Assembly: GCA_016763995.1 (NCBI GenBank)
Contig: JAESST010000086.1
Coordinates: 1 to 36,348 of the forward strand
Direction: 5' to 3'
Length of the DNA stretch: 36,348 bases
Source of the DNA: Flavobacteriales bacterium
GTDB taxonomy: Bacteria > Bacteroidota > Bacteroidia > Flavobacteriales_E > Vicingaceae
In this document: positions 8,274 through 30,187 of the stretch, piece after piece
Layout of the letters: every line of letters starts with the position of its first letter
Numbering within the stretch: position 1 is the stretch's first letter
The notes under the pieces: model-generated
Told to the model about the DNA's origin: nothing
The model's input: only the letters and a program-made list of their open reading frames with translations
The model's database searches: none
Position numbers and translations under genes: made by a program

Positions 8274-8930
8274 ATGAAAACATTAGATAGATTAATGAGG
8301 AAGCTTAGGAAACCAATAATTGGAAAAAGTTTAGAAAAAAAAGGAAGTTATTCAAGTAGAAGTTACATTGAAAGTTTCTTAAAAAAGTATGATTCTCCAT
8401 CTATTTACCAGAACTTATTTGAGGAATGCTATGATAAATCAAGTCTTGCAACTAAGACCAATATTCGTCATTCTAAAAAAATTAAATTTGGAGACTCTTT
8501 ATCTGATATAGTAGCGATAAAGAACTCTAATTCGCTTATTATAAAAGAAATGGCCCCATTTTCTTTGTTGTTTTCGAGAACTAGAATTGGGAACTATAAA
8601 GCGAAGTCTGTTATGTCCTTTTATAACATGAAGCTTTTTGCATATAATTATTCTTTCTCTTGCCTTGATGAAGAGGATAGAAGCAATATTATTGGCAATA
8701 TTCATGAAAAATATTTAGACAAAAACTCTTCCTTCGATATTGAAAAGAATAGTATTATAGATCAATTTGGGAATTGCTTATTGATTGAAGATCAGGTTAA
8801 TTTAACTATTTACTATACTAAATTGAAAGAAGGGATTTACAATAATTTACTTTTGCTTTCGAAAGAGGAGAAGGAAAACAAAGCTTTGCTGGCTGAATAT
8901 CAGAAAAACGAGTTGCAATTACGCTTGTAA
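8274..8930 (+). CDS. Hypothetical protein (orphan ORF between IS remnants)
   Basis: Intact 218-aa ORF with no recognised family motifs. Confidence 0.6.
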   Translation: MKTLDRLMRKLRKPIIGKSLEKKGSYSSRSYIESFLKKYDSPSIYQNLFEECYDKSSLATKTNIRHSKKIKFGDSLSDIVAIKNSNSLIIKEMAPFSLLFSRTRIGNYKAKSVMSFYNMKLFAYNYSFSCLDEEDRSNIIGNIHEKYLDKNSSFDIEKNSIIDQFGNCLLIEDQVNLTIYYTKLKEGIYNNLLLLSKEEKENKALLAEYQKNELQLRL

Positions 8931-9263
8931 AAGTATTTTTTAGGTAAATATATTGCCTATAACTAGCTTGTTATTAAAGGATTGCCGCTTAACTCGATTC
9001 TCTGAGTATTGTGATCGAGTCGAGCTAAAATGGTATCAGCTACTGTTTTTTATCAATAATTCCATAGCATTCGTTATAGGAATTTGAGAAGTGAATGATT
9101 TAAACTGCTCTCTTTACTCCGGGAATAGGTACTTAACATAACTGGCACCTCCAGCTTGGGCTTTTAACGTGGAATAGATAGAGCGATGCTATATAAGGAG
9201 AAGCTTTAAATAGAGAACTTGCCTTCACACAAACCGCTTATGCTTCAGATATCTTAAGCTTTA

Positions 9264-9614
9264 ATGACAGAAGTACTGAACCTGTTAATGATCATAGAAA
9301 CCAACCTTAACAAAAAACAACTCTCTACAGGATTGGCTTCTTACTTCTTTTTTATAATGGGAACGCTTCATAGAAGCACTCCAGTTCCTCAGACAAGTGT
9401 GCCCGAGTGGGGGATATGTAAATTGGGTAAATCACAACTTAGAAAAGCACTTTATTTATGTTCTTGGTCGACAAAAAAATGTAATAAAAATTGCATTGAA
9501 ATGTATGACAGATTGAAAGCCAAAGGAAAACCTGAGAAGGTTATAAAGGTTCCGATTGCTAATAAATGGATTAAATAAGCCTTTTCAGTTGTAAAAAAAG
9601 CAAAATCATTATGA
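9264..9614 (+). pseudogene. IS110-family transposase C-terminal remnant
   Basis: TSVPEWGICKLGKSQLRKALYLCSWSTKKCNKNCIEMYDRLKAKGKPEKVIKVPIANKWIK matches IS110/IS116/IS902 C-terminal domain pattern; homology continues past an in-frame TAA as AFSVVKKAKSL. The left boundary is uncertain. Confidence 0.8.
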
Positions 9615-9853
9615 TAAAATACTTGCGAGTTAACACGGGTCATTGCGAATTCAAGTAGCAAAGTGTTGAATGAAGTAATCTTGATAATTACAAAAAAAAT
9701 CAGGTCTCTAGATACTTTTTTAGTATGCTAATTGAAAATTATGCATTTTGATACATCCCTCATACTTCGGAATACTCAATGTACAATTTTTGTATCGAAG
9801 TGCATTTAAAAAAGTGCTCCGTTTCCGAATAGAATGATTGCGTCGCTCCTATC

Positions 9854-10666
9854 CTATTCGTCTTTGTTTTCTTTCTTTTGAAATATTTTTTTGAGTCCTT
9901 GGAATCGTTCTTTCTTATCCTTTTTCATTTCTGTTTTTTCTGTTTTGTCTTCTTTCTTTGGGAACCATTGTTTCCATTTCATTTGAAATTTACTCTCTTC
10001 TTTGTTTTCCTGTTTAGGTTCCTTTGTTTTATCCTTCTTTATTTTTTTTGGCTTTGGAATTTGAAGTTCTCCACTCTTATACTTTTCTATTTTTCTTTCT
10101 CCATTTTCATTGTAAAGGTTTACTTTGCCATTTTTCAGCCCAGCTTTATACTTTCCTTTTTCTTTCAGCTTTGCCTTTGCGTTAAAAATTTCATACACTC
10201 CATGCTTCTGACCTTCTTTAAAATTGAATACTTCTTTTTTAGCACCTGAAGGCAAGTAAGAGATAGCTTCTCCGTCTAAACGTCCTTCTTTCCATTGGTA
10301 AGTTTGTTCATATCCTCCTTCTTCTGTCCATGCTTTCCACTCTCCCGTTTTTAGGCCATTGGCAAAGCTTCCTTTCAAAATCAACTTCTCTTTTTTGAAT
10401 AACTCGAATTTTCCATCTAATAAATTACCATGAAATCCTCCTAGGTTAGATTGGATTTTTCCTTTATAATACCAGTAGTATCGTTTAAAGTTATCTAATT
10501 CTATTTCTGTTGTAATTCGAGACACTTCTGCTAGAATAATCGAATCATTCTTTACAATTTTAATGTCCTTTCTTGTCGACACTTCATAGTTTTCTTGTCC
10601 TACTAATAAGCCAGAAGCAAAAAGAAGCATTGTCAGTATGCTTACTGCTTTTCTATATTCCTTCAT
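9854..10666 (-). CDS. YwqK-like MORN-repeat-variant protein with signal peptide
   Basis: Repeats such as GNLLDGKFELFKKEKLILKGSFANGLKTGEWKAW and KEGRLDGEAISYLPSG; 4-nt ATGA overlap with the upstream gene. Confidence 0.75.
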   Translation of the reverse strand: MKEYRKAVSILTMLLFASGLLVGQENYEVSTRKDIKIVKNDSIILAEVSRITTEIELDNFKRYYWYYKGKIQSNLGGFHGNLLDGKFELFKKEKLILKGSFANGLKTGEWKAWTEEGGYEQTYQWKEGRLDGEAISYLPSGAKKEVFNFKEGQKHGVYEIFNAKAKLKEKGKYKAGLKNGKVNLYNENGERKIEKYKSGELQIPKPKKIKKDKTKEPKQENKEESKFQMKWKQWFPKKEDKTEKTEMKKDKKERFQGLKKIFQKKENKDE

Positions 10667-11157
10667 TTTGAAATTACTTTTTGTTCATTCATGTATTCTA
10701 AAGAAATGTTTTCTTCCGAATAGTCCTTTACTGTTACTTTTTTCACTGTTTGCCCTTTCTTCACTAAAAAACTTCTACCTGCAATAGTTAATAAGCCTAC
10801 TTCTTTATTGTTGCTACTTTTTACCTTTCCTCCATATTTAATAAATGGCCATTGGATCTCTTTTTTTTCAACTAGTGGAGTTGACTTCCTATTAGGTATT
10901 GTAGAATTTACTGTAGAATTTATCGATCGATTTAAATTCTTCAAAGAGCTTGAAACACGAAAAGGGTCTTCATAATCAAGCGCTAACTCGTATCGCACAG
11001 TTTCTTTTTCTACTACAGGTTTTATTAGTGTTTTTTGAGAAATATTTTGCAATACTTCATCAGGTGACATTCCGTTCATAATTTGATACGCAATCCCTCC
11101 CCAAACAACTAGCATTAGAGGAATCAAAAGATATAAATTTTTCTTATTGCTTTTCAA
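10663..11157 (-). CDS. PilP/GspC-like inner-membrane component
   Basis: N-terminal TM, DYEDPFRV motif, then IKYGGKVKSSNNKEVGLLTIAGRSFLVKKGQTV resembling PilP/GspC HR domain; apparent TTG start abutting the upstream stop. Confidence 0.6.
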   Translation of the reverse strand: MKSNKKNLYLLIPLMLVVWGGIAYQIMNGMSPDEVLQNISQKTLIKPVVEKETVRYELALDYEDPFRVSSSLKNLNRSINSTVNSTIPNRKSTPLVEKKEIQWPFIKYGGKVKSSNNKEVGLLTIAGRSFLVKKGQTVKKVTVKDYSEENISLEYMNEQKVISK

Positions 11158-12096
11158 CTATTGTGCTGTAAATGATCTATTCGTACTAAATACACTTTCA
11201 TTATTAACGACATCAAAACTTTTGATTCTCCAAAAATAGCTACTGCCTACATTTAAACTAGAATCTATATAAGTGTTAGTTGTAATTCGATATTGAGCAG
11301 GGTTTGCAGATAAGGATCCTTCGTAGAGATACAAAATATCATAAGCCCAATTGTCATTGGCATCTACTCCACTTTGCCAAGTAAAAGTAATTACTGGGCC
11401 AATCGGAGGTGTCAGGCCATCTGCTGGAGTTTGTGGCGTTGGTGCAGAAGGACTTATTTGATCTATTTTAAAATTCGATTCTGAGAATTCTGTTTGACTT
11501 TCATTGTTAACTGCTTTAACCCTCCACGTGTACTTGTTGCTAGTTAATATTTTCCCAGTGTTGATGGTATTCGTTAGTGTTGTGTCTTGAAAAACAATGT
11601 TTCCATTTGCATTATTAATGACCTGCGTAATGTAGCTTTGTGCACTAAATAAACCTTCCCATCTAAGTGTTAAAGAAGAATCCTTGTATACACTATCTTT
11701 TAACGGAAATGTTATAATAACTGAACTTAAACTTATGTTCGTTGTGCTATCAATAGTAAACGATCGGACAACATAACTTGTGGAACTAACACTATTTAAA
11801 GCTCGTAAACTCCATTCATACTCTCCTGGGTTAAAGTTATAAGTAAACTGATTTCCCCGAATAAAGGTATCTACAGCAAAGCTAACGACACTGTCAAATC
11901 TTCCTCGAACTACCTCTAGTTGATAATCATCTGCTCCTTCTGAATAATCCCAGAAAAAATTAACAGTCGTATTTCCCGATTTAAATTGATCGGGCGGACT
12001 TAACACATTTAGCCCTTTTTTTGAGATGTCTTTTTCAATTACATCATCACAAGAAAACAAAAAAACAGCGAGAATTAATAAGCAACAATTTTTCAT
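11158..12096 (-). CDS. Lipoprotein with three FN3-like repeats
   Basis: Lipobox MKNCCLLILAVFLFSC; three approximately 90-aa repeats ending in EWSLRALN / TWRVKAVN / FWRIKSFD. Confidence 0.75.
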   Translation of the reverse strand: MKNCCLLILAVFLFSCDDVIEKDISKKGLNVLSPPDQFKSGNTTVNFFWDYSEGADDYQLEVVRGRFDSVVSFAVDTFIRGNQFTYNFNPGEYEWSLRALNSVSSTSYVVRSFTIDSTTNISLSSVIITFPLKDSVYKDSSLTLRWEGLFSAQSYITQVINNANGNIVFQDTTLTNTINTGKILTSNKYTWRVKAVNNESQTEFSESNFKIDQISPSAPTPQTPADGLTPPIGPVITFTWQSGVDANDNWAYDILYLYEGSLSANPAQYRITTNTYIDSSLNVGSSYFWRIKSFDVVNNESVFSTNRSFTAQ

Positions 12097-12099
12097 TTC

Positions 12100-12615
12100 T
12101 TAAACATTTATTGATTGTATATATAAGGTAAGAGAAAGACTCCTTTTCTTTGTTCTCGGCGATTCCTCAATGTTGAAATATGCCGAAGAAACTTTTCCGG
12201 ATGTATTCATCTTTTCAAACTCATCCATCAGCATTACTAAATTTTTAAAAGTGCCTTGCAACACAATTGGCGATGTAGTCAATTCAAAATTTTCTTTATC
12301 CTGTATATAATACTCTGGAAAACTCTTTAAGCTTACATTGTATTTGCTCGAGAGTTCAGATATTTCATACAAGAGAGATTCTCTCATGTCTAACACACTG
12401 GAGTAAAGCATTTTTGTGCTTCCTTGCAGCTGCTTAAGTTCTGATTCTAGTTTTGCTATTTCCTTTGGAGCTCTTTCTATATTAATTAGTTGGTTTTCAA
12501 TGTTTTCAATATTCTGACTCAAATCAAGAGTTTCTTGGAATGCTAGATTCCACGATATCATGAAAAAAAGTAAAGTTGACACCCATAGAATAATATTTTT
12601 CTTCTTAAAACTCAT
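12100..12615 (-). CDS. PilO/GspM-like alignment-complex protein
   Basis: N-terminal TM, coiled coil, C-terminal small domain TSPIVLQGTFKNLVMLMDEFEKM typical of PilO; operon position. Confidence 0.6.
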   Translation of the reverse strand: MSFKKKNIILWVSTLLFFMISWNLAFQETLDLSQNIENIENQLINIERAPKEIAKLESELKQLQGSTKMLYSSVLDMRESLLYEISELSSKYNVSLKSFPEYYIQDKENFELTTSPIVLQGTFKNLVMLMDEFEKMNTSGKVSSAYFNIEESPRTKKRSLSLTLYIQSINV

Positions 12616-13820
12616 CTTACCTCCACTTGCAATTTAAATTTTGAAATTTCTTTTCTTTCTAACTTTTGAAAGTTCTTTATATTGATCGTTTTAATCCATT
12701 CTTCTTGTTTCAACAAAGTAATCCAGTCGTTTAACACTGTGCTGGATTTAGCAATTCCACTTATGTTGATTGTTTTAATGTCAAACTCAATGTCTTCTCC
12801 TTTTTCAATTTTACGTTTAGAGGGATTAATGTTCAACTCATTCCATGTAATCCCCTTAGGCTTGCTAGAGGCCAAACGATCGGCATAATAAGTGCTATTT
12901 GATGCTGAGATTAAATCTGTTTTCAAAAAAAACGTCTCTTTATTTTCTTTCTCTATTCTCAATTGATTCAGGCGATCCAACTGGTTTTTATTTAATTGTA
13001 ATCGATCATTCAGCTGATTAAATTCTAACGAATAATCTTGGAAAAGGAAAAAGTTTATCAGTAGGGAACTAAGAAAAAAGGCCAAAATTACTTTCAGCCC
13101 TAAACTGAACATTTTTCTTTGAGTGAACTCTTCACGTTCATGCATTATGTTTTCAGAAAGTATACTTTCTCCGGTAGAAGCTAAAAAGTGATTAAACGCA
13201 ACTGCATAAGCCAACAACCAGTATGATGGAATGAATTCATCTCCTAGTTTTACGTTCGAACTCTCTTCCTTAGAATCATTCCAACCTAAAAGTCTCCCTT
13301 CTACTATTTCAAGCTCTTTCGACTCGAAAACGATACGTTGATTTTCTATTATGCTCGTAATATTATTCACTCCTGAAGTTCCCAAGTTAACCTCAATTAC
13401 CTGAAAACCCTCTGCTTTAAACTTCTTTAATAGCTCATCTAAAATTGACTTTCGAATGAATTGGATCCATGATTGTGAGGCTGTAATCGAAGCAGAATAA
13501 AAATATAATTCATCTGCTTTTATATTGGGTAAGCTTTTTTGAATTAAGTCTAGATCTGAGTCTCCTTCTTTATGACTACTTATTTTGCTGAGTACTCCCC
13601 TTCCTCTCACGTTCAAATAAACTGGTAGCTTATTGTCAAGATCTTTTGAAAATAATTCCTCTAGTCCATTCCCTTTTAACTTTTGCAACAATAGAACTTC
13701 GTTCTTCTTAAGACTGAGCTCTGTTAAAAAGAAATCCACCTCTCCTCTATCGGATAATTTAAGATCTATCCCATAAGCAGTATTGCCTTCAATAAAAGAT
13801 GTTAATTTCTCCTTCAGCAT
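12612..13820 (-). CDS. PilM/PilN- or GspL-like protein
   Basis: N-terminal cytoplasmic region, TM near residue 245 (KVILAFFLSSLLINFFLF), coiled coil and PilN-like C-terminus INISGIAKSSTVLNDWITLLKQ. Confidence 0.6.
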   Translation of the reverse strand: MLKEKLTSFIEGNTAYGIDLKLSDRGEVDFFLTELSLKKNEVLLLQKLKGNGLEELFSKDLDNKLPVYLNVRGRGVLSKISSHKEGDSDLDLIQKSLPNIKADELYFYSASITASQSWIQFIRKSILDELLKKFKAEGFQVIEVNLGTSGVNNITSIIENQRIVFESKELEIVEGRLLGWNDSKEESSNVKLGDEFIPSYWLLAYAVAFNHFLASTGESILSENIMHEREEFTQRKMFSLGLKVILAFFLSSLLINFFLFQDYSLEFNQLNDRLQLNKNQLDRLNQLRIEKENKETFFLKTDLISASNSTYYADRLASSKPKGITWNELNINPSKRKIEKGEDIEFDIKTINISGIAKSSTVLNDWITLLKQEEWIKTINIKNFQKLERKEISKFKLQVEVR

Positions 13821-15745
13821 TAGTAGATAACAGTAGGTTTGATAAAAATATTCAACTGAGAACTTGATTTAGATCTAGTTCTATTTCCAAAAATCCATTT
13901 CAGAACAGGAATTCTAGCAATTAACGGTAAGCCGGAACCAGAATCATTGGTTGACTTTTCTTCTAATCCACCAAGAAGAACAATTTCATTGTCTTTCACT
14001 CTAAGGATAGATGTAAAACTTCTAGTTACCTTTCCTGGAGGAGCATCCTCAGTAATTCTCTCTGTAAAATCAGATTGCTCAACAGATATTTCCATTGTAA
14101 TTTGATCGTTACCGCTCACAAAAGGTTTAATTTTTATGGATAAATCTGCGTTAACAGCTACATAGGTTCTATTATTCTGCGTTTGAGGACTTAAACTTCC
14201 TTGAAATATACTTTGCTCATTTACATAGTATTCCGTGTTCCCAATTTTTAAATTAGCTTCATGACCGTTTAAGGTAGCCAGTTTTGGTGTCGACCTTACT
14301 TTTAAGATCCCATCTGTTTCTAAAGCCTTGATGCTCAGGTAAAAATTTGGGGTTACTTTTCCTAAGTTAATGGTACTTCCTTTGTTAATGCTACCAATTA
14401 CATTGTTCAATGAACTTGAACTAAAATTAAAGCTTGCATCTGGTAATATTTGGCCGTTAGTAGCTGCCGAAGGCTCATTTCCCAAACCAGCCGTTATTCC
14501 AGTTGAAACGCTTCTATTTTTACGATAATCAACAATAATTACTTCAATAGCAATCATTGGCACTACCTGATCAATTTTTTCTAAAAAATGAACTAGATCT
14601 TGGATTTGTGGAACAGACCCACTAATTACCAAGCTATTCAAGTCTGGAAATTCCTTTAATTCTACTTCTTTTGTTAAATCAGATGGTATAAATGTTATTA
14701 AATCTTCTATTGACCTATTTTGTAGCTGAAATATAATCGTGTTTCTTAAGCCTTCTGCTTTTCGCTCTCCAATCAAATATACTCCGTTTGATTTTGAATA
14801 GGTATAGATTGTAGACTCAAACAAGTTAGACAATAAATCATCAAAAGTGCTAGACTGTAAATTGAGGGATTTGTTTCCTTGCAAATTAGCCATAAGGTAA
14901 TAGTTCAGCTTTAACTCTGCTCCCAATGCTTTCACTATCTCATCAATTGAAATGTCTTCTGCTGATATTTCAATGTCATTTGGTCCATTTACTTTTAAGA
15001 ATAAGCCTTCTTCTTTCTTTCTTTCGTATCTCTCATTTCTTATTTTAGATTTATTTTGGTTCGCCTTTTTAAGATCTTCTGAGTTTTCTGCTTTTCCTTT
15101 CTCCGATAAAAGGTAAAAGTTGTCTTCCGTCTCTACAAGCTCCAGATCATTTGCAAAAGCAAACTTTTCAATTGCATTTTTAAAGGGTACACCTTTAATG
15201 TAAACAGATACTTTCTTACTGGAAATTTGAGGGGCTAACACCACATTCTTACCTGAAACTTCTGTTATTTTCCTCACTACTTTACTTAAATCATCGTTGT
15301 TTAAGTCCAACAGTAGAAAATCTGTGCTTTTGAAGTACTGTACTATTATCGCCTTTTCTTTTACTTCTTCGATTTCTTGTGCAGGGGGATTGTATTTCCC
15401 AATGGACATGATGTTTCCTGTAAATTCAATATCTAATTGATACTTTTTTACTAAAAAAGTCAAAACATCTGCTACAGTTACATTTGAGAAATTATTGACA
15501 ACCAATACGTCTAAACCTTTGTCAACACTAACGTTCAAATCATTGGTGTTTGCAATTCCCCTAATAAACTCATCGAGTGATGATCCATTAATTGAAAGTT
15601 CAACTAGATTACTTAAGCCTGGGTTATCTACGGCAATAATATCGAGCTGTGCTTTTATTTGATCAATCCTTCCTTGTGAAAAGCCCAAACTTCCATGAAG
15701 CATAAACAAGCTCAATAAAACAATCAATAGGTAGTTATTTTTCAT
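13820..15745 (-). CDS. Secretin (GspD/PilQ family)
   Basis: Signal peptide, repeated N-domains, LKEFPDLNSLVISGSVPQIQDLVHFLEKID and MIAIEVIIVDYRKN, C-terminal VLLGGLEEKS...GLPLIARIPVLKWIFGNRTRSKSSSQLNIFIKPTVI. Confidence 0.92.
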   Translation of the reverse strand: MKNNYLLIVLLSLFMLHGSLGFSQGRIDQIKAQLDIIAVDNPGLSNLVELSINGSSLDEFIRGIANTNDLNVSVDKGLDVLVVNNFSNVTVADVLTFLVKKYQLDIEFTGNIMSIGKYNPPAQEIEEVKEKAIIVQYFKSTDFLLLDLNNDDLSKVVRKITEVSGKNVVLAPQISSKKVSVYIKGVPFKNAIEKFAFANDLELVETEDNFYLLSEKGKAENSEDLKKANQNKSKIRNERYERKKEEGLFLKVNGPNDIEISAEDISIDEIVKALGAELKLNYYLMANLQGNKSLNLQSSTFDDLLSNLFESTIYTYSKSNGVYLIGERKAEGLRNTIIFQLQNRSIEDLITFIPSDLTKEVELKEFPDLNSLVISGSVPQIQDLVHFLEKIDQVVPMIAIEVIIVDYRKNRSVSTGITAGLGNEPSAATNGQILPDASFNFSSSSLNNVIGSINKGSTINLGKVTPNFYLSIKALETDGILKVRSTPKLATLNGHEANLKIGNTEYYVNEQSIFQGSLSPQTQNNRTYVAVNADLSIKIKPFVSGNDQITMEISVEQSDFTERITEDAPPGKVTRSFTSILRVKDNEIVLLGGLEEKSTNDSGSGLPLIARIPVLKWIFGNRTRSKSSSQLNIFIKPTVIY

Positions 15746-17197
15746 TTAGTTCGTCATCAATAAATAATATACTTCTTCAATAGAACTTGCTCCTTTTGCC
15801 AATAATTCAAAGGCAATCTGATCTAAGCCTCTAATCCCTTTCTGCTCCAAATAGTCTGTTACGTTGTATTCTGATTCCCTAACCTTTGATGCTAGGTAAT
15901 TATCAATGGGTATAATTTCATACAATGCTTTTCTTCCTGTATATCCTGTATAGTGACAACTTTCACATCCAACAGGTTCATATACTTCTTTGATGTCATA
16001 AGGTAATTCATATCCTAATGGTAATTCCGAGGAATTCAACTCCTTCTTTTGCTTACAATTGTTGCACAATAAACGCACAAGTCTTTGAGACGCGGTTACG
16101 TTTAATGTTCCTGCCAATAAATAAGGCGGCACTCCCATATCTACCAATCGGGAAATAGTTCCCCATGCTGAATTAGTATGGATAGTTGATAGGACTAAAT
16201 GCCCTGTTAAGGCCGCTCTTATGGCCATTTTTGCCGTTTCTCCATCTCGAATCTCTCCTAGCATAATAATATCAGGATCTTGTCTTAAAAACGATTTTAA
16301 AGCACTTGAAAAAGTGAGTCCAATTTGCTCCTTCAATTGAACTTGGTTAATTCCTTCTAAAGTATATTCAATTGGATCTTCAATTGTAACAATGTTTGTT
16401 TTTTCATCGTTGAGTTCCTTCAAGGTAGCATAAAGTGTTGTTGTTTTACCTGACCCTGTTGGCCCACTAATTAATACAATTCCGTGCCCCTTCTTCACTC
16501 CTTCTAAATAGTTCAACAATTGAGTTTCTTCAAAGCCCAATGCATTAATATTTATATCTGTAGCATCTCTACTCAAGAGCCTCAATACAATCTTTTCTCC
16601 ATGAAGTGTTGGTAAAACCGAAACCCGAATATCAAAGTTCTTCCCATCTTCAGAAAAAGATATCCTTCCATCTTGAGGCAATCTTTTTTCCGCAATATCG
16701 AGATTCGCTCTAATCTTTAACTTGTTAATAATTGCGGGATATTCATCTTTATGGATGATGTATTTTTCAATGAGTTTTCCATCTATTCTCAACCTTACAC
16801 GACACTTTTCTTCGTAAATTTCTATGTGAATATCACTAGACTCAAGTCGCTCTGCTTCTGAAATTAGTTCAAGAACAAAGTCATCGTTGGAATAACTTAA
16901 AACAGTATCCTTTTGTTGCTTCTTTTTACTTCTTCGATATAGGCGGCTAAGTGTTTGTTGTAAAATTTCTGTTTCTAACGATTCTAATTCTACTGTTCTG
17001 CCAAAAACCAGTTCTAGTTCTTCTTGTACTCCAACAGAATTTACCTTGCTGTCCAAGTAAAAGGTCACTTTTTCGGTGCTTACTTTTTTAGGAATAATAC
17101 GGTAATGCCATGCCTGATCAGCAGACAAAAATTGCTGATATTCAACTTTTATATCTATAAATTCTTGATTAATCATAAAAGTATTGAATTCATCCAT
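15746..17197 (-). CDS. GspE/PilB family secretion/assembly ATPase
   Basis: Walker A GPTGSGKTTTLY, Asp box IVTIEDPIEY, Walker B MLGEIRDGETA, C-terminal CxxC...CxxC zinc motif. Confidence 0.95.
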   Translation of the reverse strand: MDEFNTFMINQEFIDIKVEYQQFLSADQAWHYRIIPKKVSTEKVTFYLDSKVNSVGVQEELELVFGRTVELESLETEILQQTLSRLYRRSKKKQQKDTVLSYSNDDFVLELISEAERLESSDIHIEIYEEKCRVRLRIDGKLIEKYIIHKDEYPAIINKLKIRANLDIAEKRLPQDGRISFSEDGKNFDIRVSVLPTLHGEKIVLRLLSRDATDININALGFEETQLLNYLEGVKKGHGIVLISGPTGSGKTTTLYATLKELNDEKTNIVTIEDPIEYTLEGINQVQLKEQIGLTFSSALKSFLRQDPDIIMLGEIRDGETAKMAIRAALTGHLVLSTIHTNSAWGTISRLVDMGVPPYLLAGTLNVTASQRLVRLLCNNCKQKKELNSSELPLGYELPYDIKEVYEPVGCESCHYTGYTGRKALYEIIPIDNYLASKVRESEYNVTDYLEQKGIRGLDQIAFELLAKGASSIEEVYYLLMTN

Positions 17198-17682
17198 TCA
17201 TCATTTCGCATAAAATCAATCGACATTAAACGGCTTGAAGTACTCAATAGAAATAATATTCCCGACATTATTCCTGCAAGGGGGATGTTTCTTTCTTGCA
17301 TTTTAGTTTTGAAAACGACAGCAATAATAGCACTAAGCAAAAGGGAGAAAGTGAAAAAGAGAATAAAGCTTGGGAGGTTAAATATAAAGGCACAAACAAC
17401 AAAAAATAAAATATCGCCCAGTCCTATTTTGGAATCGACAATATTTACTAAAGAAGATTCCTTTATAGAGAAATAGATGGTTATCACCAATAAGTTAACG
17501 ACAATAAATAATAGATTTAATAAGAAAGAGTTTAGTATTTCATCTATTAGTTGATCCGAATACACTAAATAAGCGATTAGTGTAACAGGTAAAATCCACC
17601 ATGAGATTGACCGCTGCTTAAAATCTTGAAAAACAATAACACCAAGACTAATTAGGAAAATAATGAAGGGGAATAATTTCAT
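17173..17682 (-). CDS. Type IV prepilin peptidase-like A24 protease (short, no methyltransferase domain)
   Basis: Polytopic 169-aa protein with FQDFKQRSISWW and GLGDILFF motifs carrying both catalytic Asp residues of GxGD proteases. Confidence 0.82.
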   Translation of the reverse strand: MKLFPFIIFLISLGVIVFQDFKQRSISWWILPVTLIAYLVYSDQLIDEILNSFLLNLLFIVVNLLVITIYFSIKESSLVNIVDSKIGLGDILFFVVCAFIFNLPSFILFFTFSLLLSAIIAVVFKTKMQERNIPLAGIMSGILFLLSTSSRLMSIDFMRNDEWMNSILL

Positions 17683-17685
17683 GAA

Positions 17686-18078
17686 TTAGTCTTTAGTTAC
17701 TTCTTTTAATTTCTGATCCTGATCAATTTCCCAAATATTATAAATTCCATCTCCATCGAAATCTGTTACTGAAGTTGCTGTTATTTTAAAGCGATTATTT
17801 GTTGCTTCTTGAATTTCTATTTTATAATTTCCTGACCCACCATCGCTTACTAGGGTGGCGTGTTCAAAGTCAATTTCGTTAAAATCTGTAGAATACTTTG
17901 AATTCATATAGAAAAATGTTTTTTCTAAGGTATAAATGTGTTTCAGCTGCAATTGTGCTTCAGTACTCTTTGCTTTAGCTATTAAAGGCATCAACTTCGG
18001 TAACGCTAATAGAATTAAAATCCCGACAATAATTAGGACAACAAGTAGTTCGGTGATGGTAAATGCTTTCAACTTCAT
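17686..18078 (-). CDS. Type IV pilin / GspG-like major pseudopilin
   Basis: MKLKA|FTITELLVVLIIVGILILLALPKL class III signal; C-terminal DFDGDGIYNIWEID Ca-binding-like loop. Confidence 0.88.
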   Translation of the reverse strand: MKLKAFTITELLVVLIIVGILILLALPKLMPLIAKAKSTEAQLQLKHIYTLEKTFFYMNSKYSTDFNEIDFEHATLVSDGGSGNYKIEIQEATNNRFKITATSVTDFDGDGIYNIWEIDQDQKLKEVTKD

Positions 18079-18121
18079 AAGTAAAAAAAATAGGATAGCA
18101 AATCTAAAGATTATGTTTTGT

Positions 18122-19270
18122 TTATTGAATACCTGAGCCTAATTCGAAAAGAGGTAAATACATGGCAATTAATATAATCCCAACAAAGAATCCGATAAAG
18201 ATAATTAAGAATGGTTCTAAGAGGCTACTTATGGTTTTTGAGCTATTTTCTGTTTCACTATCATATTGACTTTGTATTTGTTCAAAAACAATAGTTAACT
18301 TATTTACTTCTTCTGCCACTTTCACCAATGAGACCATCCTTTTCGGGAAAATAGAATGCTTGCTCATCGATTCATATAACAAGGAGCCTTTTAGAATATC
18401 TTTCTCCATCTGAATAAGTGCCTCTTCTAAAGGATAGAACTTCATCATTTTTCTAACCAATAACATAGAGCTCACTAAAGGGTTATTCACCCTGATTAAT
18501 AGGCTCATAGAATGGCAGAATCGTGATAGGTAAGTTTTCGAAGTAATGTCTCCTAAAATTGGTGTTTTCAAAACCACAATGGTTAGATACTTCCTAAACC
18601 AATCTTTCTTTCGCTGACTAAAAATAAATACCACAATACCTGCAATAATTAAGAGTATAATTAATCCATAAGCTTGCAACGATTCTGATAAATCCAATAC
18701 TCTTTGAGTTAAATAAGGCAACTCTCCTCCAAATCGCTTAAAAGCATCTTCAAATATGGGCACAATAAAACTCAACATAAAAACAACTGCCAGCATCGCC
18801 GTTACCAGTACAATCACAGGATAAGAAAAGGCACTGACCATTTTACGCTTAAACTCTAATCTTCCTTCATAAAAATTGGCTAAATCCTCCAGAATTGTTA
18901 TAATAGTACCACTTTCTTCTCCAATCTTTATACTATAATATTCATATTCAGAAAAGTAAGCAGTTTTTTTTAACCCTTCGGAAAAGGTTAATCCCTTAAT
19001 AATATTATCAAAAACTTCTTGTAATATATTCTTTGTCTTTATATTTTTTTCTCCATCAATACTTAACTCAATACTCATTCTGATGTCAATTCCTGCAGAT
19101 AAAAGTAAACTCAGGTCTTTATAGAATCGAAATTTCTTTTTATCAGAAAGGCTTTTTGAAAGAGAAAGGTCAGTACTTAAGAGTTCTGATAAACTTCTAG
19201 TCTTCTTTTTAAGAGAAGAATCGATGTTATCTGCTTGATTATTTTTAAGCTCTTGTATATTAATTCCCAC
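18122..19270 (-). CDS. GspF/PilC family inner membrane platform protein
   Basis: DKKKFRFYKDLSLLLSAGIDIRMSIEL and two T2SSF-type repeats with C-terminal TM; apparent GTG start. Confidence 0.92.
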   Translation of the reverse strand: MGINIQELKNNQADNIDSSLKKKTRSLSELLSTDLSLSKSLSDKKKFRFYKDLSLLLSAGIDIRMSIELSIDGEKNIKTKNILQEVFDNIIKGLTFSEGLKKTAYFSEYEYYSIKIGEESGTIITILEDLANFYEGRLEFKRKMVSAFSYPVIVLVTAMLAVVFMLSFIVPIFEDAFKRFGGELPYLTQRVLDLSESLQAYGLIILLIIAGIVVFIFSQRKKDWFRKYLTIVVLKTPILGDITSKTYLSRFCHSMSLLIRVNNPLVSSMLLVRKMMKFYPLEEALIQMEKDILKGSLLYESMSKHSIFPKRMVSLVKVAEEVNKLTIVFEQIQSQYDSETENSSKTISSLLEPFLIIFIGFFVGIILIAMYLPLFELGSGIQ

Positions 19271-19391
19271 AGGACAGTAAAATTAAAAAAGGATCGGCTA
19301 CATTCAACTTCTTGTAAGCCTCAATTCCATCTTCTGTAAAGGTAATTGAATTCGTTTCTAAAATAGCTATAGTATTAATAGAATAAGGCAT
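19260..19391 (-). CDS. Candidate small 43-aa protein between pseudopilin and GspF-like genes
   Basis: MPYSINTIAILETNSITFTEDGIEAYKKLNVADPFLILLSCGN*, AAGGA immediately upstream; absent from the supplied ORF track because of length. Confidence 0.35.
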   Translation of the reverse strand: MPYSINTIAILETNSITFTEDGIEAYKKLNVADPFLILLSCGN

Positions 19392-19417
19392 ATTCCTTAT
19401 TGATCTGTACAATTACT

Positions 19418-19900
19418 TTACCTTTTAAACAGGGGGCTTTTTGTTTGATTTATAAAAAAAGAAGCTTCTATGTTAATTCTTGGGCGTATATAGTGTTTTT
19501 GTTTGTTTTTGGTTATTTCTAATAGTATTGAATTTAAAACGAATGATTGTTCATTGATCTGCTGCTGCACCAAAACAGAATCAAACTGAAAAACCAGTTC
19601 TTGATTCATCTCTGATCGAGTAATCTCTTTTTCTGTAAATCGATATTGAATGCCTCCTCTGTTACTTCTTATCACTCCTCTACTTTTTGAAGACCAGTCA
19701 TGATAACGACTAAAATCATGCTTTAGTAAAAAGCGTAATTCTTGAGTTTGTTCTATGTAATTAAGATTTTCGTTTCTTAATCTTAAGACTTTACTAACTA
19801 TTTCAATGGAATGATATCCAATAGTTGTTACTATAGCTGAAATGGCTAAAGCAATGGTTAATTCAGTTATCGTAAAGGCCTTAATCTTCATCAGCTTCAT
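19418..19900 (-). CDS. Pseudopilin-like protein (GspJ-like position)
   Basis: MKIKA|FTITELTIALAISAIVTTIGYHSIEIV class III signal. Confidence 0.82.
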   Translation of the reverse strand: MKLMKIKAFTITELTIALAISAIVTTIGYHSIEIVSKVLRLRNENLNYIEQTQELRFLLKHDFSRYHDWSSKSRGVIRSNRGGIQYRFTEKEITRSEMNQELVFQFDSVLVQQQINEQSFVLNSILLEITKNKQKHYIRPRINIEASFFINQTKSPLFKR

Positions 19901-20243
19901 TTATTAGAATGATTCTCTTTATTGTATATAGTACCTCTTCTTTTTGAAGCACCAATAATTGAACGGCAAAAGCACTCTCTATTCTTTCATAATTATCTAC
20001 TAGTACTGATACTTCTAACTCCCTGATTCGAAAAGAATGATTCTCTAATTTGTGCTTCCCTTCTTCCAATTCCATTAGATACTGTTCCGTAACCAAAACA
20101 GCTTCTTGCTTTAAATTTTGCCCTATAGACACCTGATTGAACACAATAAAGCAGATACCAAAGCTAACACTTATCAAAATTAGTGATACAATAGTTTCTA
20201 CTAAAGTAAAGGCTTTTAATCGATGTTTATTTAATCTAACCAT
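19881..20243 (-). CDS. Pseudopilin-like protein (GspI-like position)
   Basis: RLKA|FTLVETIVSLILISVSFGICFIVFNQV class III signal. Confidence 0.82.
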   Translation of the reverse strand: MVRLNKHRLKAFTLVETIVSLILISVSFGICFIVFNQVSIGQNLKQEAVLVTEQYLMELEEGKHKLENHSFRIRELEVSVLVDNYERIESAFAVQLLVLQKEEVLYTIKRIILINEADED

Positions 20244-21478
20244 TTTGCTATTCCCCTTATTCTTTGAGATGTTTTGATTTGAATTCCCAAATATTCTTGA
20301 GGCATTTCTTCTGCATTAATCACACCATCTAGTAAGTGATTTTCGTAAATCGAAGAGCTTGTTTTTAGAATAAATTTCTCACAAGTAATACTTCCTTTTA
20401 CCTTTCCTCTCAATTCTACTTTGTCAAAGCTATAAACATTACCTGTTAGTTCTGCTGCCTCTTTTATACTCACAACTCCTTTGTTTGTATAGTTATCTGT
20501 ACCATATAAGATCACTTCTCCTGCAATTTTTGCCGACTCTTGAATTATAATAGCCGAACGTTCTCTTTTCGACTCTAATAAAATGGAAGAAGGGTAGTAT
20601 AATTCAGAATAGGCGCCAATAATAATAGTATCAGAAGCAATTAAATGAATAGATCCTTTGAAGTTGGCTGCAAGTTCTATTCGAGGAGCTATTAGTAAAA
20701 TATCTTCTGCGAAAACCGTACCCTCTAAATAAATACTTTCTTCAGACTTTACTATAATTCTCCCCTTCAATTTTCCATCGTACAAATAGATTCTCTCGGG
20801 TGAATAATAACAAAGCGTACTGTCTTGAAAGCTTTGCTGACTTTCTAATACTCCTTCTGATGCTACATCGTTGTATGAAACTACCTTGTGAGCCTCTTTG
20901 GGAATCCCGTCCAATAAAATGCGATCTAAATAGTCTTTTAAGGGATCATTTAAGTCGGGAATCTTATTTTCACTTGTTGTTTTAGTTCCGTTTATTAAGT
21001 CTTTACCTGAATAGCTTTTCCCTTCTATGTATGCTCTTTTAAGTCCTCTTTGGGGAATAAAAGAATTCCCAATAACCCTTGCATCTCCGCACAAAGATAA
21101 GGGATGGTTATTGTCTGCTAAATACAAAGCAAAGGGTGTTTCATTTTTATACCCTAAGAGAACGGATTCTTGAAAAGAAGATTGACGAAAACTCGTTTTT
21201 GCTGTTGCTAGATAAAAGCCTCCCCAATGCTCTAATTGAAGTTGTATGGCTTGTTCATCTCTTGAAAAAAGATATGTTTTATCAGGATCAAAATCTTTAA
21301 TCTCCTGTGTTCGCAACAAATTCATTGCTGAATGAACCCGCTCAATTGCCTCTATCCGGCCTTCATACTGTGCCATTCGTAATTTCTGGTAATAGGAATA
21401 CAAGACAAAAGAGGTCGCAATCGACCCAATAATGAGCGATATAAAAATAGCATACAAAAGAGATCCGGCTTTAAGCAT
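20231..21478 (-). CDS. GspK-position pseudopilin-like protein with bactofilin-like beta-helical body
   Basis: MLKAGSLLYAIFISLIIGSIATSFVLYSYYQK N-terminal helix; repeated GRIIVKSEESIYLEGTVFAEDILLIAP / GEVILYG / GNVYSFDKVELRGKVKGSITCEKFIL repeats. Confidence 0.6.
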   Translation of the reverse strand: MLKAGSLLYAIFISLIIGSIATSFVLYSYYQKLRMAQYEGRIEAIERVHSAMNLLRTQEIKDFDPDKTYLFSRDEQAIQLQLEHWGGFYLATAKTSFRQSSFQESVLLGYKNETPFALYLADNNHPLSLCGDARVIGNSFIPQRGLKRAYIEGKSYSGKDLINGTKTTSENKIPDLNDPLKDYLDRILLDGIPKEAHKVVSYNDVASEGVLESQQSFQDSTLCYYSPERIYLYDGKLKGRIIVKSEESIYLEGTVFAEDILLIAPRIELAANFKGSIHLIASDTIIIGAYSELYYPSSILLESKRERSAIIIQESAKIAGEVILYGTDNYTNKGVVSIKEAAELTGNVYSFDKVELRGKVKGSITCEKFILKTSSSIYENHLLDGVINAEEMPQEYLGIQIKTSQRIRGIAKWLD

Positions 21479-21963: not shown

Positions 21964-23343
21964 CTATTTATGGTCTTTGAATATTGCGAATACAGTTAAT
22001 AATACGATTCGGATGTCAAAGTATACTGTCCAATTGTTGACGTAGAAACGATCTAATCGTACTCTATTTTGTAACAAAGCAAAGTCATCAATTTCACCTC
22101 TAAAGCCTTTAATCTGAGCTAAGCCTGTTATTCCTGGTTTAATCGCATGGCGATTCATAAAATTCCCTACTAAATTGCTGTATTCTTCAGTATGCTTCAA
22201 CATATGAGGTCTGGGGCCCACAATACTCATTTGTCCTTTTATTACATTGATAAATTGTGGTAATTCATCCAATGATGTTTTTCTTAGAAAGGCCCCAATT
22301 TTTGTAATTCTTGGGTCGTTTTGTGTTGCTTGCAAGTTGTCTGCCTCTGAATTTGGACGCATGCTTCTAAATTTATAACAATTGAATCCTTTGTTGTTTA
22401 TTCCAGACCTTTTCTGCTTAAAGAATACTGGCCCTTTGGAACTTAGTTTCACTGCTATTGCCAAAATTGGAAACAGCCAACTAAATAATAAAATTGTAAG
22501 CAATAAAGAGAATATTAAATCAAAACTTCTTTTGATCAGTGCATTGTACTGATCATCTAAAGGAGTAAGTGCAATTTTTAACACAGTTGTTTGATTGTAT
22601 CTGCTTAGGTTTAACTTTCTTGCGCTAACCTTCTTCCAATCAAAAATTAACCGAAGGCGAATAAATCGATTATCACAGAAGTTAGAAATTACCTCAATAT
22701 CATTTTCAGTATAATTAGAAAGAGGAATAAAAATTTCAGAAATTGGGTTAACATTATTAATCCTTTCAAGTTCTTCCAATTGAACTCCTTTGGCCTCAAG
22801 TTCAATAATTTGCTGTGTTTCAGTAGAAATATTACTCTTTAAAAAATCTGATACTTCTGATAAATTATTTTTACTCCCGAAAAGTACAATTGAGTTTTGC
22901 TTCGTTTTTTTGGCTATTCTCCATTGTGAGATCCAGTAGGTAGTTTTTCTGCCAACTAATAATAGAACAGCAAAACTTAGATAGGTACTCAATAGAAATA
23001 TCCTTGAATAAAATGTTTTGATAAGCCCATTAAAAGCAATTGTGATTAAAAACTGAAGAACAATAGCAGTAGTTACTGCAAATACATAGCGGTTCTTACT
23101 CACAAAGGACTGAAGGGAATAAATTTTTTGGGAATTAGAGATAAAGAGCCAAGTAATGTTGATGAATAACAATAGACTTGCATATTCATTGTCAATGAAA
23201 GAAAAACTCAACTTTTCCTCTAAGCCTAAAAGCTCTGACAAATAAAATCTAAAGTATATTCCTAAGAAAAAGGCAATATTTAACCCTACTAGGTCTATTA
23301 CTCTATAATAGAGTGATAGAAGATATTCATGATTTTTATACAC
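21964..23343 (-). CDS. Undecaprenyl-phosphate sugar phosphotransferase, WcaJ-like
   Basis: KRSFDLIFSLLLTILLFSWLFPILAIAVKLSSKGPVFFKQKRSGINNKGFNCYKFRSM and SIVGPRPHM bacterial sugar transferase motifs. Confidence 0.93.
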   Translation of the reverse strand: MYKNHEYLLSLYYRVIDLVGLNIAFFLGIYFRFYLSELLGLEEKLSFSFIDNEYASLLLFINITWLFISNSQKIYSLQSFVSKNRYVFAVTTAIVLQFLITIAFNGLIKTFYSRIFLLSTYLSFAVLLLVGRKTTYWISQWRIAKKTKQNSIVLFGSKNNLSEVSDFLKSNISTETQQIIELEAKGVQLEELERINNVNPISEIFIPLSNYTENDIEVISNFCDNRFIRLRLIFDWKKVSARKLNLSRYNQTTVLKIALTPLDDQYNALIKRSFDLIFSLLLTILLFSWLFPILAIAVKLSSKGPVFFKQKRSGINNKGFNCYKFRSMRPNSEADNLQATQNDPRITKIGAFLRKTSLDELPQFINVIKGQMSIVGPRPHMLKHTEEYSNLVGNFMNRHAIKPGITGLAQIKGFRGEIDDFALLQNRVRLDRFYVNNWTVYFDIRIVLLTVFAIFKDHK

Positions 23344-24446
23344 TAATGTTGCTTTCTTTCGGCTAATTTAAGGAATAAGTCCTCATAGCTCTGAATGATA
23401 ATTTCCCAAGCATATTGTTTTTCTATTTTACTGCGATTTAATCGAATGTATTCTTTTTCAAGTTCAGGCCCTATGGGAGTATCCATAATTTTTTTAACAT
23501 CCTCTACTGAAGAGAAATAGTACGCTTCTGATTCTAATATGGCTTTATTAAATATATTATCATGAGCAACAATAAACGCAGAAGATGCCATTGCTTCCAA
23601 TAATGAAGGGTTGGTGCCTCCAACGGAATGACCATGAAAATATAAGTTAGAATAATGTCTTAGATTATTCAATACAAGTAAATCATAAATCCCTCCTAAA
23701 AATTGAATATTGGGTTTTGATTTATATTTATTTACCAAATATTTACCAAATTCATTTTCAGTTTTCCCCACGACTAAAAACGTTCGTTGGTTCGCTGCAG
23801 AAACAACTCCATCTAGAATAATCTCTATATTATTTTCAGGTTCCATTCTAGCAATCAGCATATTGTAAGACCCTTTAGACACGTTATACCGTTCTAATAT
23901 TGAAAGGTCTGGTGTCGAAAACAAATCTGAGCCATAGGCAATAAAGGTAGAATCTAATTGATATTTGTCTTTTAAATAGGACTGTATTCCTTTAGAGTCA
24001 GCAACCAAATGATTAGAACTTTCTACTGCCCACTTCTCTGCTTTTTTTAAGAACCCTTGAACTGGAGAGCTAAATTTAGTTCGTTTCCATTCTAGCCCAT
24101 CCATATTGGTAACTACAATCGACTTTCGAGGTAATAAGCTTTTCCAAATAGAACTACTTGTGTACCCTAACTGAAGAAGTATATCAAAGTTCTGCTTTCG
24201 GGCATTCATGATGCAGTTAAAATCATATAAAAACTGACCTGTTGTTCCTATTTTATCTTCCCAATCTTTACAGTGTTGAAGCCTAACCCCATTCCATTCT
24301 TTTTTTTGATATGGATGATCGGAAGAATTGTAAACCACCACCTCATGCCCTCTTTTCACCAATCCAACCGAAAGGTATTCTGCAAACTGCTCGAACCCTC
24401 CATAATGATTTGGTATCCCCCTAGTTCCGAGTATCCCTATCTTCAT
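23343..24446 (-). CDS. Glycosyltransferase with DUF1972-type N-terminus (GT4-like)
   Basis: MKIGILGTRGIPNHYGGFEQFAEYLSVGLVKRGHEVVVYN and HSVGGTNPSLLEAMA. Confidence 0.9.
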   Translation of the reverse strand: MKIGILGTRGIPNHYGGFEQFAEYLSVGLVKRGHEVVVYNSSDHPYQKKEWNGVRLQHCKDWEDKIGTTGQFLYDFNCIMNARKQNFDILLQLGYTSSSIWKSLLPRKSIVVTNMDGLEWKRTKFSSPVQGFLKKAEKWAVESSNHLVADSKGIQSYLKDKYQLDSTFIAYGSDLFSTPDLSILERYNVSKGSYNMLIARMEPENNIEIILDGVVSAANQRTFLVVGKTENEFGKYLVNKYKSKPNIQFLGGIYDLLVLNNLRHYSNLYFHGHSVGGTNPSLLEAMASSAFIVAHDNIFNKAILESEAYYFSSVEDVKKIMDTPIGPELEKEYIRLNRSKIEKQYAWEIIIQSYEDLFLKLAERKQH

Positions 24447-25713
24447 TTAAATATGGTTTAAGTTGTAAAAGAAGGAGTAAGAAGAATATAAAAAATACAA
24501 TTCCTTTGTTTCGTTCGATAATAGACTCCGTCATTTGAAAAATAACGAAACCAATTAAAAATGCTGCTAAAAGAAAGTTTTTCTTCTCAATGGCAGCCAT
24601 TAAGAAACTAAAATGAAGCATTATGTATAGCCCTAAGCCAATCAAGCCTAGCTCAGCCAAAACTTGAACAAACTGATTGTGGATGTTATAATTTTCATAC
24701 CAAGGGTTCAAGCCATTTTTATAGAACTCTTTATTAATAATAGCTCTACGATCTCCAGGGGAATATCCTAAAATCATTGTACCTTCATCTAACATTTTGT
24801 TTACTACTACATACCAAAAGGTAATGCGCATGGAGGTTCCATTAAATTTAGGAATATCTTCTGCAACTATTAATTCTCCACGTTTAATCTTTTCTAGGTT
24901 TTCCATCCCATTCAGTTGTGCTAACTCCGCAATACGATTCTTAACCGCCGGAACTTTAGAGATTCCAAATACTGAGACAACTCCAATTAACAGTACGATG
25001 CTGACTTCTTTCCATCCAACTTTTTGTTTGATGGCACGAATTAGAAAGCCAATAATTAAGAAAAAGCTTGTTACTACCAATACATTTTTAGAAGCCGAAA
25101 TCAGCAATCCAACAAGCGATAAGACAATGCTTATTATCAAAAGAAATTTCTCTGTATTCTTTAATTCGTTCTTTTGAAAAAGAAAGGCAGTTATTAATAT
25201 GGATAGGAAAATGTAATACGAGTAAAAAACTGCATGAAATGCCAGAGAGCTTGTAAAATCATGATAGGTTAATAAGCTGCCTTCTGTAAAATAATGTGAG
25301 ATAGACTGAACCAGCAAAACAATGGTACAAAGTGCCATCGAATATACATACGCCTTTAACCAAAAAAGAAACTGCTGATAACTTGGCCTTAGATCAAATA
25401 AGATTAAAGGAAAGATCAGCAAACTTAGCTTGCTTTCCACATTCTTAATCCCATAGCTTATGTCTGTTGTATAAAACAAAGAGATGATTTGCCAAACAAA
25501 AAATCCTAAAAACGAAAAAAAGATCCATTTCTCATACCTACTTTCAAAATTGAACGACGGTTTACGTTTCGTTACTATTTTCTGAATAATCCAAAATACA
25601 AGTAAGGCAACAATCCCTAAATTAGAAACCTTGTAAGGTAGTGGAAATGAAATTGCAATAAAAAGTATACTGAAATGTATTCCTCTGCTTAAATATTGGT
25701 TTAACTTGCTCAT
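24421..25713 (-). CDS. O-antigen ligase family protein
   Basis: Multi-TM protein with NYNIHNQFVQVLAELGLIGLGLY, typical Wzy_C / O-antigen ligase motif. Confidence 0.88.
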   Translation of the reverse strand: MSKLNQYLSRGIHFSILFIAISFPLPYKVSNLGIVALLVFWIIQKIVTKRKPSFNFESRYEKWIFFSFLGFFVWQIISLFYTTDISYGIKNVESKLSLLIFPLILFDLRPSYQQFLFWLKAYVYSMALCTIVLLVQSISHYFTEGSLLTYHDFTSSLAFHAVFYSYYIFLSILITAFLFQKNELKNTEKFLLIISIVLSLVGLLISASKNVLVVTSFFLIIGFLIRAIKQKVGWKEVSIVLLIGVVSVFGISKVPAVKNRIAELAQLNGMENLEKIKRGELIVAEDIPKFNGTSMRITFWYVVVNKMLDEGTMILGYSPGDRRAIINKEFYKNGLNPWYENYNIHNQFVQVLAELGLIGLGLYIMLHFSFLMAAIEKKNFLLAAFLIGFVIFQMTESIIERNKGIVFFIFFLLLLLQLKPYLNEDRDTRN

Positions 25714-25818
25714 TTCCGATTAGAAGATTTGTAAATCTACCTTTAATAGAATAGCTAGCATCAGGTCTCAGTTATTTTTTATCCACTATAGCTCTTCAAT
25801 AAGTTTTACTTGCCAATA

Positions 25819-28230: not shown

Positions 28231-28231
28231 A

Positions 28232-30186: not shown

Positions 30187-30187
30187 C

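What the first reader, a model, noticed from the sequence alone, without database searches (positions are those of the whole stretch)
9854..21478. Complete, compact T2SS / type IV filament-like assembly operon in a Bacteroidota genome
Thirteen supplied ORFs on one strand, mostly overlapping or abutting, encode secretin, one assembly ATPase, platform protein, short prepilin peptidase, four pilin-like proteins, PilMN/PilO/PilP-like proteins, an FN3 lipoprotein and a MORN protein. Most Bacteroidota rely on T9SS and gliding, and type IV filament machines in this phylum are poorly characterised (Cytophaga hutchinsonii T2SS is one reported case). No PilT-like retraction ATPase is visible here, favouring a secretion or non-retractile filament role. 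Function is inferred.
Basis: partly seen in the sequence, partly recalled or inferred. Interest (0 to 1): 0.8.

Follow-up and report, generated by a model that had tools for sequence, protein, structure and literature searches.

The report
Bacteroidota type-II-like secretion operon, RHS-linked
The window carries a complete thirteen-gene protein-export machine of a kind already known from Cytophaga, and comparing about 250 related genomes suggests, as a new and testable idea, that this machine exports giant RHS/YD-type shell proteins.

Summary
In detail: thirteen intact, mostly overlapping minus-strand genes (9854-21478) encode a secretin, one assembly ATPase, a platform protein, a short prepilin peptidase, four pilin-like proteins (one with a beta-solenoid), a GspL-like PilM-PilN fusion, PilO/GspM-like and PilP/GspC-like proteins, an FN3 lipoprotein and a MORN protein. 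It is not a new kind. Gene order matches the Cytophaga hutchinsonii 'T2SS' chu_3191-3202 (PMC5553014). The operon is in 41 of 247 sampled species of the class, with one ATPase and no PilT. The ATPase tree puts the Bacteroidota clade with T4aP PilB, outside proteobacterial T2SS, as Denise 2019 reported.

New here is a cargo hypothesis. Giant signal-peptide YD/RHS proteins (RHSn) occur in 38/41 operon-positive versus 31/206 operon-negative genomes; within families, 30/33 versus 4/57 (exact stratified P = 3e-14). In 23 of 38 genomes one lies within 30 kb of the operon (1.3 expected). Of the 31 operon-negative RHSn genomes, 27 carry an unrelated partner gene (fam4) instead; 4 of the 38 operon-positive ones do. 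Likeliest reading: a non-retracting pseudopilus machine exporting folded RHS/YD shells. Export is inferred, not shown. This genome's RHS genes lie on other contigs.

The parts
20231..21478 (-). GspK-like minor pilin with beta-solenoid domain (415 aa)
   Evidence: Model (pLDDT 70): 54-residue N-terminal helix, then beta-sheet and beta-helix; best PDB fold ComZ, a Thermus competence pilin, weak E 6e-3; sub-threshold Bactofilin hit; N-terminus 'KAGSLLYAIF...' conserved across genomes
19881..20243 (-). minor pilin-like protein (120 aa)
   Evidence: N-terminus RLKAFTLVETIVSLILIS, prepilin-like; same place in relatives
19418..19900 (-). minor pilin-like protein (160 aa)
   Evidence: N-terminus KIKAFTITELTIALAISA, prepilin-like; same place in relatives
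18122..19270 (-). inner-membrane platform protein, GspF/PilC (382 aa, GTG start)
   Evidence: PF00482 3e-39; NCBIfam GspF 215 bits, below the 424-bit cut-off; start agrees with relatives
17686..18078 (-). major (pseudo)pilin, GspG/PilA-like (130 aa)
   Evidence: N-methylation motif, GspG 1e-8, PilA_Myxo 6e-14, ComP_DUS 2e-6; up to 77% identical in relatives
17173..17682 (-). short prepilin peptidase, A24 domain only (169 aa)
   Evidence: PF01478 5.8e-6; both catalytic Asp motifs QDF and GLGD; no methyltransferase domain
15746..17197 (-). assembly ATPase, GspE/PilB-like (483 aa)
   Evidence: PF00437 1e-124, Walker A, two CxxC; GspE and PilB HMMs tie at 480 bits, both below cut-off; tree
13820..15745 (-). 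secretin, GspD/PilQ-like (641 aa)
   Evidence: PF00263 2e-35, Secretin_N, STN and weak GspD-N0 hit; GspD 139 bits, below the 351-bit cut-off
12612..13820 (-). GspL-like protein: actin-like domain, membrane helix and PilN-like domain in one chain (402 aa)
   Evidence: PF05137 9e-7; model pLDDT 77.5; best folds are the GspL/EpsL cytoplasmic domain (E 4e-8) and, weakly, XcpY/EpsL periplasmic domains for the C-terminus
12100..12615 (-). PilO/GspM-like protein (171 aa)
   Evidence: PilO hit 0.028, sub-threshold; conserved place after the GspL-like gene
11158..12096 (-). FN3-repeat lipoprotein (312 aa)
   Evidence: lipobox FLFSC|DD; conserved C.D.IEKDI N-terminus and FN3-like repeats in 11 aligned sequences; present in 44 of 47 regions
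10663..11157 (-). PilP/GspC-like protein (164 aa)
   Evidence: N-terminal membrane anchor plus small C-terminal domain; place conserved; no HMM hit, assignment by position and analogy to chu_3191
9854..10666 (-). MORN-type exported protein (270 aa)
   Evidence: signal peptide; weak adhesin-model hit; syntenic in 38 of 47 regions, usually next to the beta-solenoid pilin elsewhere

Best explanation
The operon encodes the Bacteroidota (C. hutchinsonii-type) type-II-like secretion machine. One ATPase and the platform protein assemble a short pseudopilus from the major pilin and three minor pilins, with the GspK-like beta-solenoid protein probably at the tip. GspL-, GspM- and GspC-like proteins tie this to the outer-membrane secretin, which the FN3 lipoprotein probably assists. 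With no retraction ATPase, the pseudopilus acts as a piston and not as a twitching pilus. Its main cargo is most likely the giant RHS/YD shell proteins (RHSn and its RHSc partner): Sec exports them to the periplasm, an OmpH/Skp-like chaperone and a lipoprotein encoded beside RHSn help them fold, and the secretin lets the folded product out. Shown by sequence: the parts list, the single ATPase, the co-occurrence and the linkage. Inferred: pseudopilus action, tip position, and that RHS/YD proteins pass through the machine. (Identity of the machine alone: about 0.9; RHS cargo: about 0.55.)
For: Parts, order and folds; same order as chu_3191-3202. One ATPase in every operon-positive genome of the class; true PilT neighbours score 1e-23 to 1e-34 against this ATPase in reference loci. 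RHSn domain (A1) in 38/41 operon-positive versus 31/206 operon-negative genomes; in 13 families holding both states, 30/33 versus 4/57, exact stratified P 3e-14. In the window's own family, 12/14 versus 3/23, two of the three being fragments. Linkage: RHSn within 30 kb of the ATPase gene in 23 of 38 genomes, 1.3 expected, P 7e-27; with the curated Rhs_assc_core model, which owes nothing to these loci, 11 of 41 within 15 kb, 1.9 expected, P 1e-6. Rhs core in 41/41 operon-positive genomes versus 97/206. RHSn genomes without the operon have no secretin at all, and 27 of 31 carry fam4 beside RHSn, versus 4 of 38 operon-positive genomes (Fisher 1e-10, or 4e-8 without the nine seed genomes). OmpH-like and lipoprotein genes recur beside RHSn. 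Neighbouring RHS proteins scanned carry no T9SS sorting domain. Named examples: Tenacibaculum sp. and Leptobacterium flavescens.
Against: No RHS gene lies in this window; the six RHSn and ten RHS cores of this genome are on other contigs. RHSn occurs without the operon in 31 genomes. The A1 profile was seeded from operon-adjacent genes. In C. hutchinsonii, the published mutants lost cellulose-bound outer-membrane proteins (CHU_1277, CHU_1253), extracellular profiles did not change, and RHS proteins are not mentioned. Whether an RHS shell fits through a secretin is untested.
Confidence: 0.6

Rival explanations
1. The machine is a general T2SS-like exporter of outer-membrane or surface enzymes (such as cellulose-binding proteins). 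RHS genes are its neighbours because both belong to the flexible, free-living part of the genome.
For: C. hutchinsonii mutants lose surface cellulose-bound proteins and adhesion. Operon-positive genomes tend to be larger than operon-negative relatives.
Against: The association holds within families and, in the window's family, goes the same way in each of five genera that have both states. Linkage is well over ten times expectation. Operon and fam4 alternate as RHSn partners.
Confidence: 0.25
2. It builds a surface-exposed adhesive or DNA-binding filament (a non-retracting T4P), with the beta-solenoid pilin as tip adhesin or DNA receptor.
For: The ATPase branches with T4aP PilB. The major pilin hits ComP_DUS. 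The beta-solenoid pilin's nearest fold is ComZ, a competence pilin.
Against: No PilT in any operon-positive genome. GspL-like fusion. Compact T2SS-like parts list. The C. hutchinsonii authors found no typical type 4 pilin genes (PMC5553014).
Confidence: 0.12
3. RHS shells leave by T9SS or by cell lysis, and the operon acts on the RHS proteins only indirectly, for example by assembling a surface anchor for them.
For: T9SS (SprA) is present in 239 of 247 genomes, including all operon-positive ones. RHSn exists in 31 genomes without any secretin.
Against: T9SS is there whether or not RHSn is, so it cannot explain the pattern. No Por_Secre_tail or CHU_C domain on the RHS proteins scanned.
Confidence: 0.08

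Closest known systems
Cytophaga hutchinsonii putative T2SS, chu_3191-3202 (PMC5553014)
   Same: Same gene order: (3202), two minor pilins 3201 and 3200, F 3199, G 3198, O 3197, E 3196, D 3195, L-like 3194, M-like 3193, (3192), P/C-like 3191. Single short peptidase, one ATPase.
   Different: The FN3 lipoprotein, MORN and beta-solenoid pilin are not named as subunits in the passages read; cargo there was linked to cellulose use, not RHS proteins.
Proteobacterial T2SS (Gsp/Xcp/Pul/Eps)
   Same: Secretin, E, F, G, minor pilins, fused GspL, M-like and C-like proteins, single locus, no PilT.
   Different: ATPase outside the T2SS clade; GspD/E/F HMM scores below curated cut-offs; short peptidase without methyltransferase domain; extra FN3, MORN and beta-solenoid parts.
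Type IVa pilus (PilB/PilC/PilQ/PilM-P)
   Same: ATPase branches with PilB; PilN/O/P-like proteins.
   Different: No PilT; PilM and PilN fused; single compact operon.
Tc toxin BC / Rhs cocoon proteins (candidate cargo)
   Same: A window-genome RHSc has SpvB, TcdB-middle, FG-GAP and Rhs core matches; RHSn has an SpvB-like N-terminus (weak) and often a C-terminal YD motif.
   Different: Two separate giant ORFs (RHSn, RHSc) with their own OmpH-like chaperone and lipoprotein; full-length RHSn matches no Pfam family.

Membership tests
Bacteroidota (C. hutchinsonii-type) T2SS-like machine | gene set and order D-E-O-G-F with L/M/C-like genes downstream and minor pilins upstream | tested here: met
   against the order given in PMC5553014
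Bacteroidota (C. hutchinsonii-type) T2SS-like machine | ATPase groups with T4aP, away from proteobacterial T2SS (Denise 2019, PMC6668835) | tested here: met
   statement
Canonical T2SS | ATPase within the T2SS GspE clade; GspD/E/F over curated HMM cut-offs | tested here: not met
Canonical T2SS | fused GspL (actin-like plus periplasmic ferredoxin-like) | tested here: met
Canonical T2SS | two-domain prepilin peptidase with methyltransferase | tested here: not met
   169 aa, A24 domain only
Canonical T2SS | exports folded periplasmic proteins | not testable with these tools
   needs a mutant secretome
Type IVa pilus | retraction ATPase PilT | tested here: not met
   the window's own genome is 87% complete, but all operon-positive genomes agree
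Type IVa pilus | separate PilM and PilN | tested here: not met
   one 402-aa chain
Tad pilus | TadA-type ATPase | tested here: not met
   TadA model 54 bits, cut-off 373
MSHA pilus | no prepilin peptidase in the locus; MshL secretin | tested here: not met
   peptidase present; MshL 114 bits, cut-off 250

The most novel reading that the evidence does not exclude
In Bacteroidota the T2SS-like machine is a dedicated exporter of giant RHS/YD shell proteins (RHSn-RHSc, with their own Skp-like chaperone and lipoprotein). It is interchangeable, across species, with a second, secretin-free module (fam4 and the barrel-like fam5), so two unrelated exporters serve the same cargo.
Probability: 0.45. Interest if true: 0.8.

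Novelty: new member of a known kind. Interest (0 to 1): 0.55.

Why it matters
What the Bacteroidota T2SS-like machine carries, and how Bacteroidota RHS proteins without T9SS signals leave the cell, are both open questions. The association found here proposes one as the answer to the other and can be tested with mutants of cultured strains, some already made (C. hutchinsonii chu_3195, 3198, 3199). It would also show a type IV filament machine from the T4aP side of the tree that converged on T2SS-like export.

Tried and rejected
Novelty of the operon itself: rejected, known and common. Canonical T2SS membership: rejected on the ATPase tree and HMM cut-offs. FN3 lipoprotein as a homologue of fam4 (which would give both modules a shared docking part): hhalign only 34% probability, not claimed. 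G009 match: a different 610-aa ATPase on a 4.4-kb contig, not the operon, so not counted. PDB search with a full RHSn: no hit. T9SS as a confounder: rejected, near universal. A phylum-wide search outside the class found only other, 34-50% identical ATPases, mostly of PilB length.
Full report
Observation. The thirteen ORFs are real, intact and on the minus strand at 9854-21478. Reading in the direction of transcription: beta-solenoid pilin, two minor pilins, platform, major pilin, prepilin peptidase, ATPase, secretin, GspL-like fusion, PilO/GspM-like, FN3 lipoprotein, PilP/GspC-like, MORN. HMM hits are strong for secretin, ATPase and platform, moderate for peptidase, pilin and PilN domain, and weak or absent for PilO, PilP, MORN and FN3. 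The flanks are ordinary: a polysaccharide-synthesis cluster upstream (21964-33079) and tRNA-Cys, folB and gltX downstream (names by sequence resemblance).

Structure. The 402-aa 'PilMN' model (pLDDT 77.5) has an actin-like domain, a long membrane helix and a ferredoxin-like C-terminus; its best PDB matches are the GspL/EpsL cytoplasmic domain (E 4e-8), with the C-terminus on XcpY/EpsL periplasmic domains at weak E-values. The 415-aa model (pLDDT 70, confident in the N-terminal helix and much of the solenoid) has a 54-residue pilin-type helix followed by a beta-helix; the nearest solved fold is ComZ, a competence pilin, but only at E 6e-3. Its N-terminus lacks Glu5, as in GspK (own knowledge). 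The peptidase has both Asp motifs but only the A24 domain.

One ATPase, no PilT. The window's genome has one T2SSE-family ATPase. Across 247 genomes of the class, operon-positive ones have one match at E 1e-20 (one genome shows a split gene). In reference loci, true PilT neighbours score 1e-23 to 1e-34 against this ATPase, so a PilT would mostly have been seen, though the database sizes differ.

Phylogeny. With 73 reference ATPase loci from a named collection, the 21 Bacteroidota ATPases form one clade (100% SH-aLRT) inside a group with PilT-linked PilB proteins (92%), apart from the proteobacterial T2SS clade (100%) (quick search, no bootstrap). Denise and colleagues state the same for Cytophaga (PMC6668835). 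So it probably works like a T2SS, but by descent is not a member of the canonical T2SS clade.

Distribution and known status. Operon loci from about 50 genomes keep the same two blocks (G-O-E-D-L-M-fn3-C and MORN-betahelix-pB-pA-F), joined or split. Gene order equals that of chu_3191-3202 of C. hutchinsonii. Named carriers include Tenacibaculum sp. and Leptobacterium flavescens KCTC 22160.

The RHS link. Several loci had giant RHS-type genes beside the operon. I built a 72-position profile (A1) of the N-terminus of the large signal-peptide protein (RHSn). RHSn is 1500-2300 aa, matches no Pfam family, aligns weakly with the SpvB N-terminus, carries a C-terminal YD motif in 15 of 28 long copies (16 motifs in all, 1.0 expected) and is often followed by an Rhs-core ORF (RHSc), a layout like TcB/TcC (inference). 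In 247 genomes RHSn is in 38 of 41 with the operon and 31 of 206 without. The three misses still have Rhs cores, and G116 has a weaker RHSn-RHSc pair next to the operon. Stratified by family: 30/33 versus 4/57, exact P 3e-14. In the window's family 12/14 versus 3/23; the two misses are fragmented assemblies and two of the three exceptions are 188-219 aa fragments.

Linkage. Of 38 genomes with both, 23 have an RHSn within 30 kb of the ATPase gene, 1.3 expected from RHSn number and genome size (P 7e-27). Because A1 was seeded from operon neighbours, I repeated this with the curated Rhs_assc_core model, using only the listed part of its matches: 11 of 41 within 15 kb, 1.9 expected, P 1e-6.

Two alternative partners. 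RHSn genomes without the operon have no secretin. There, RHSn sits with two other genes, fam4 (about 370 aa) and fam5 (about 745 aa, barrel-like C-terminus), in 10 and 9 of 10 loci. In the class sample full-length fam4 is in 27 of 31 RHSn-positive operon-negative genomes and 4 of 38 operon-positive ones; in three of these four it lies beside an extra RHSn. Only 4 of 69 RHSn genomes have neither partner. An OmpH/Skp-like protein and a lipoprotein of about 200 aa precede RHSn in both settings, also in the window's genome (L123, L124).

Mechanism and limits. The simplest reading is export of RHS/YD shells by the T2SS-like machine where present, and by fam4/fam5 elsewhere. Co-occurrence and linkage are shown; transport is not. 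T9SS is near universal in the class (239/247) and cannot explain the pattern, and the RHS proteins scanned lack T9SS tails. Contrary facts: the C. hutchinsonii mutant phenotype points to cellulose-binding surface proteins, and no RHS gene is in this window. Zhang 2012 (PMC3482391) listed RHS toxins in Bacteroidetes under 'T2SS', but its table describes that pathway as Sec/signal-peptide export. I found no paper that links RHS proteins to this operon in the open library searched; subscription papers were not searched.

Verdict. The operon is a new member of a known kind. The cargo hypothesis is, as far as I could search, new, well supported statistically and directly testable.

Noticed in passing
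window 19260-19391 (-): Small ORF (43 aa, MPYSINTIAILETNSITFTEDGIEAYKKLNVADPFLILLSCGN) fills the only real gap in the operon, before the platform gene; the relatives looked at have no such gap.
   Followed up: partly
L133-L142 (for example L138:11424-14709): fam4 and fam5: two uncharacterised exported proteins, fam5 ending like an outer-membrane barrel, beside RHSn in genomes without any secretin; a candidate second RHS exporter.
   Followed up: partly
L037:2866-8436 and 1065-1457; L039:12582-18560: In one genus eCIS_core proteins and a DUF4280 protein lie next to the operon instead of, or besides, RHS genes.
   Followed up: no
L036:12597-13070, L038:8167-8640, L041:3409-3903, L049:15442-15921: LytTR-domain regulators with a coiled-coil N-terminus sit next to the operon in the window's family; possible regulators of it.
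   Followed up: no
L049 (G032), ATPase at 8921-10316: The ATPase gene is split by a frameshift although the rest of the operon is intact; assembly error or decay.
   Followed up: no
L052 (G009:C3): A 610-aa PilB-like ATPase with small ORFs on a 4.4-kb contig, unlike the operon; perhaps a foreign contig in that assembly.
   Followed up: no
PDB 3hrg (BT_3980): A Bacteroides protein of unknown function with an actin-like fold matches the GspL-like model (E 2e-4), alongside PilM and FtsA.
   Followed up: no
window 21964-33079: Polysaccharide-synthesis gene cluster (glycosyltransferases, flippase, polymerase-like protein) upstream on the same strand; not found beside the operon in the other genomes mapped.
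   Followed up: partly
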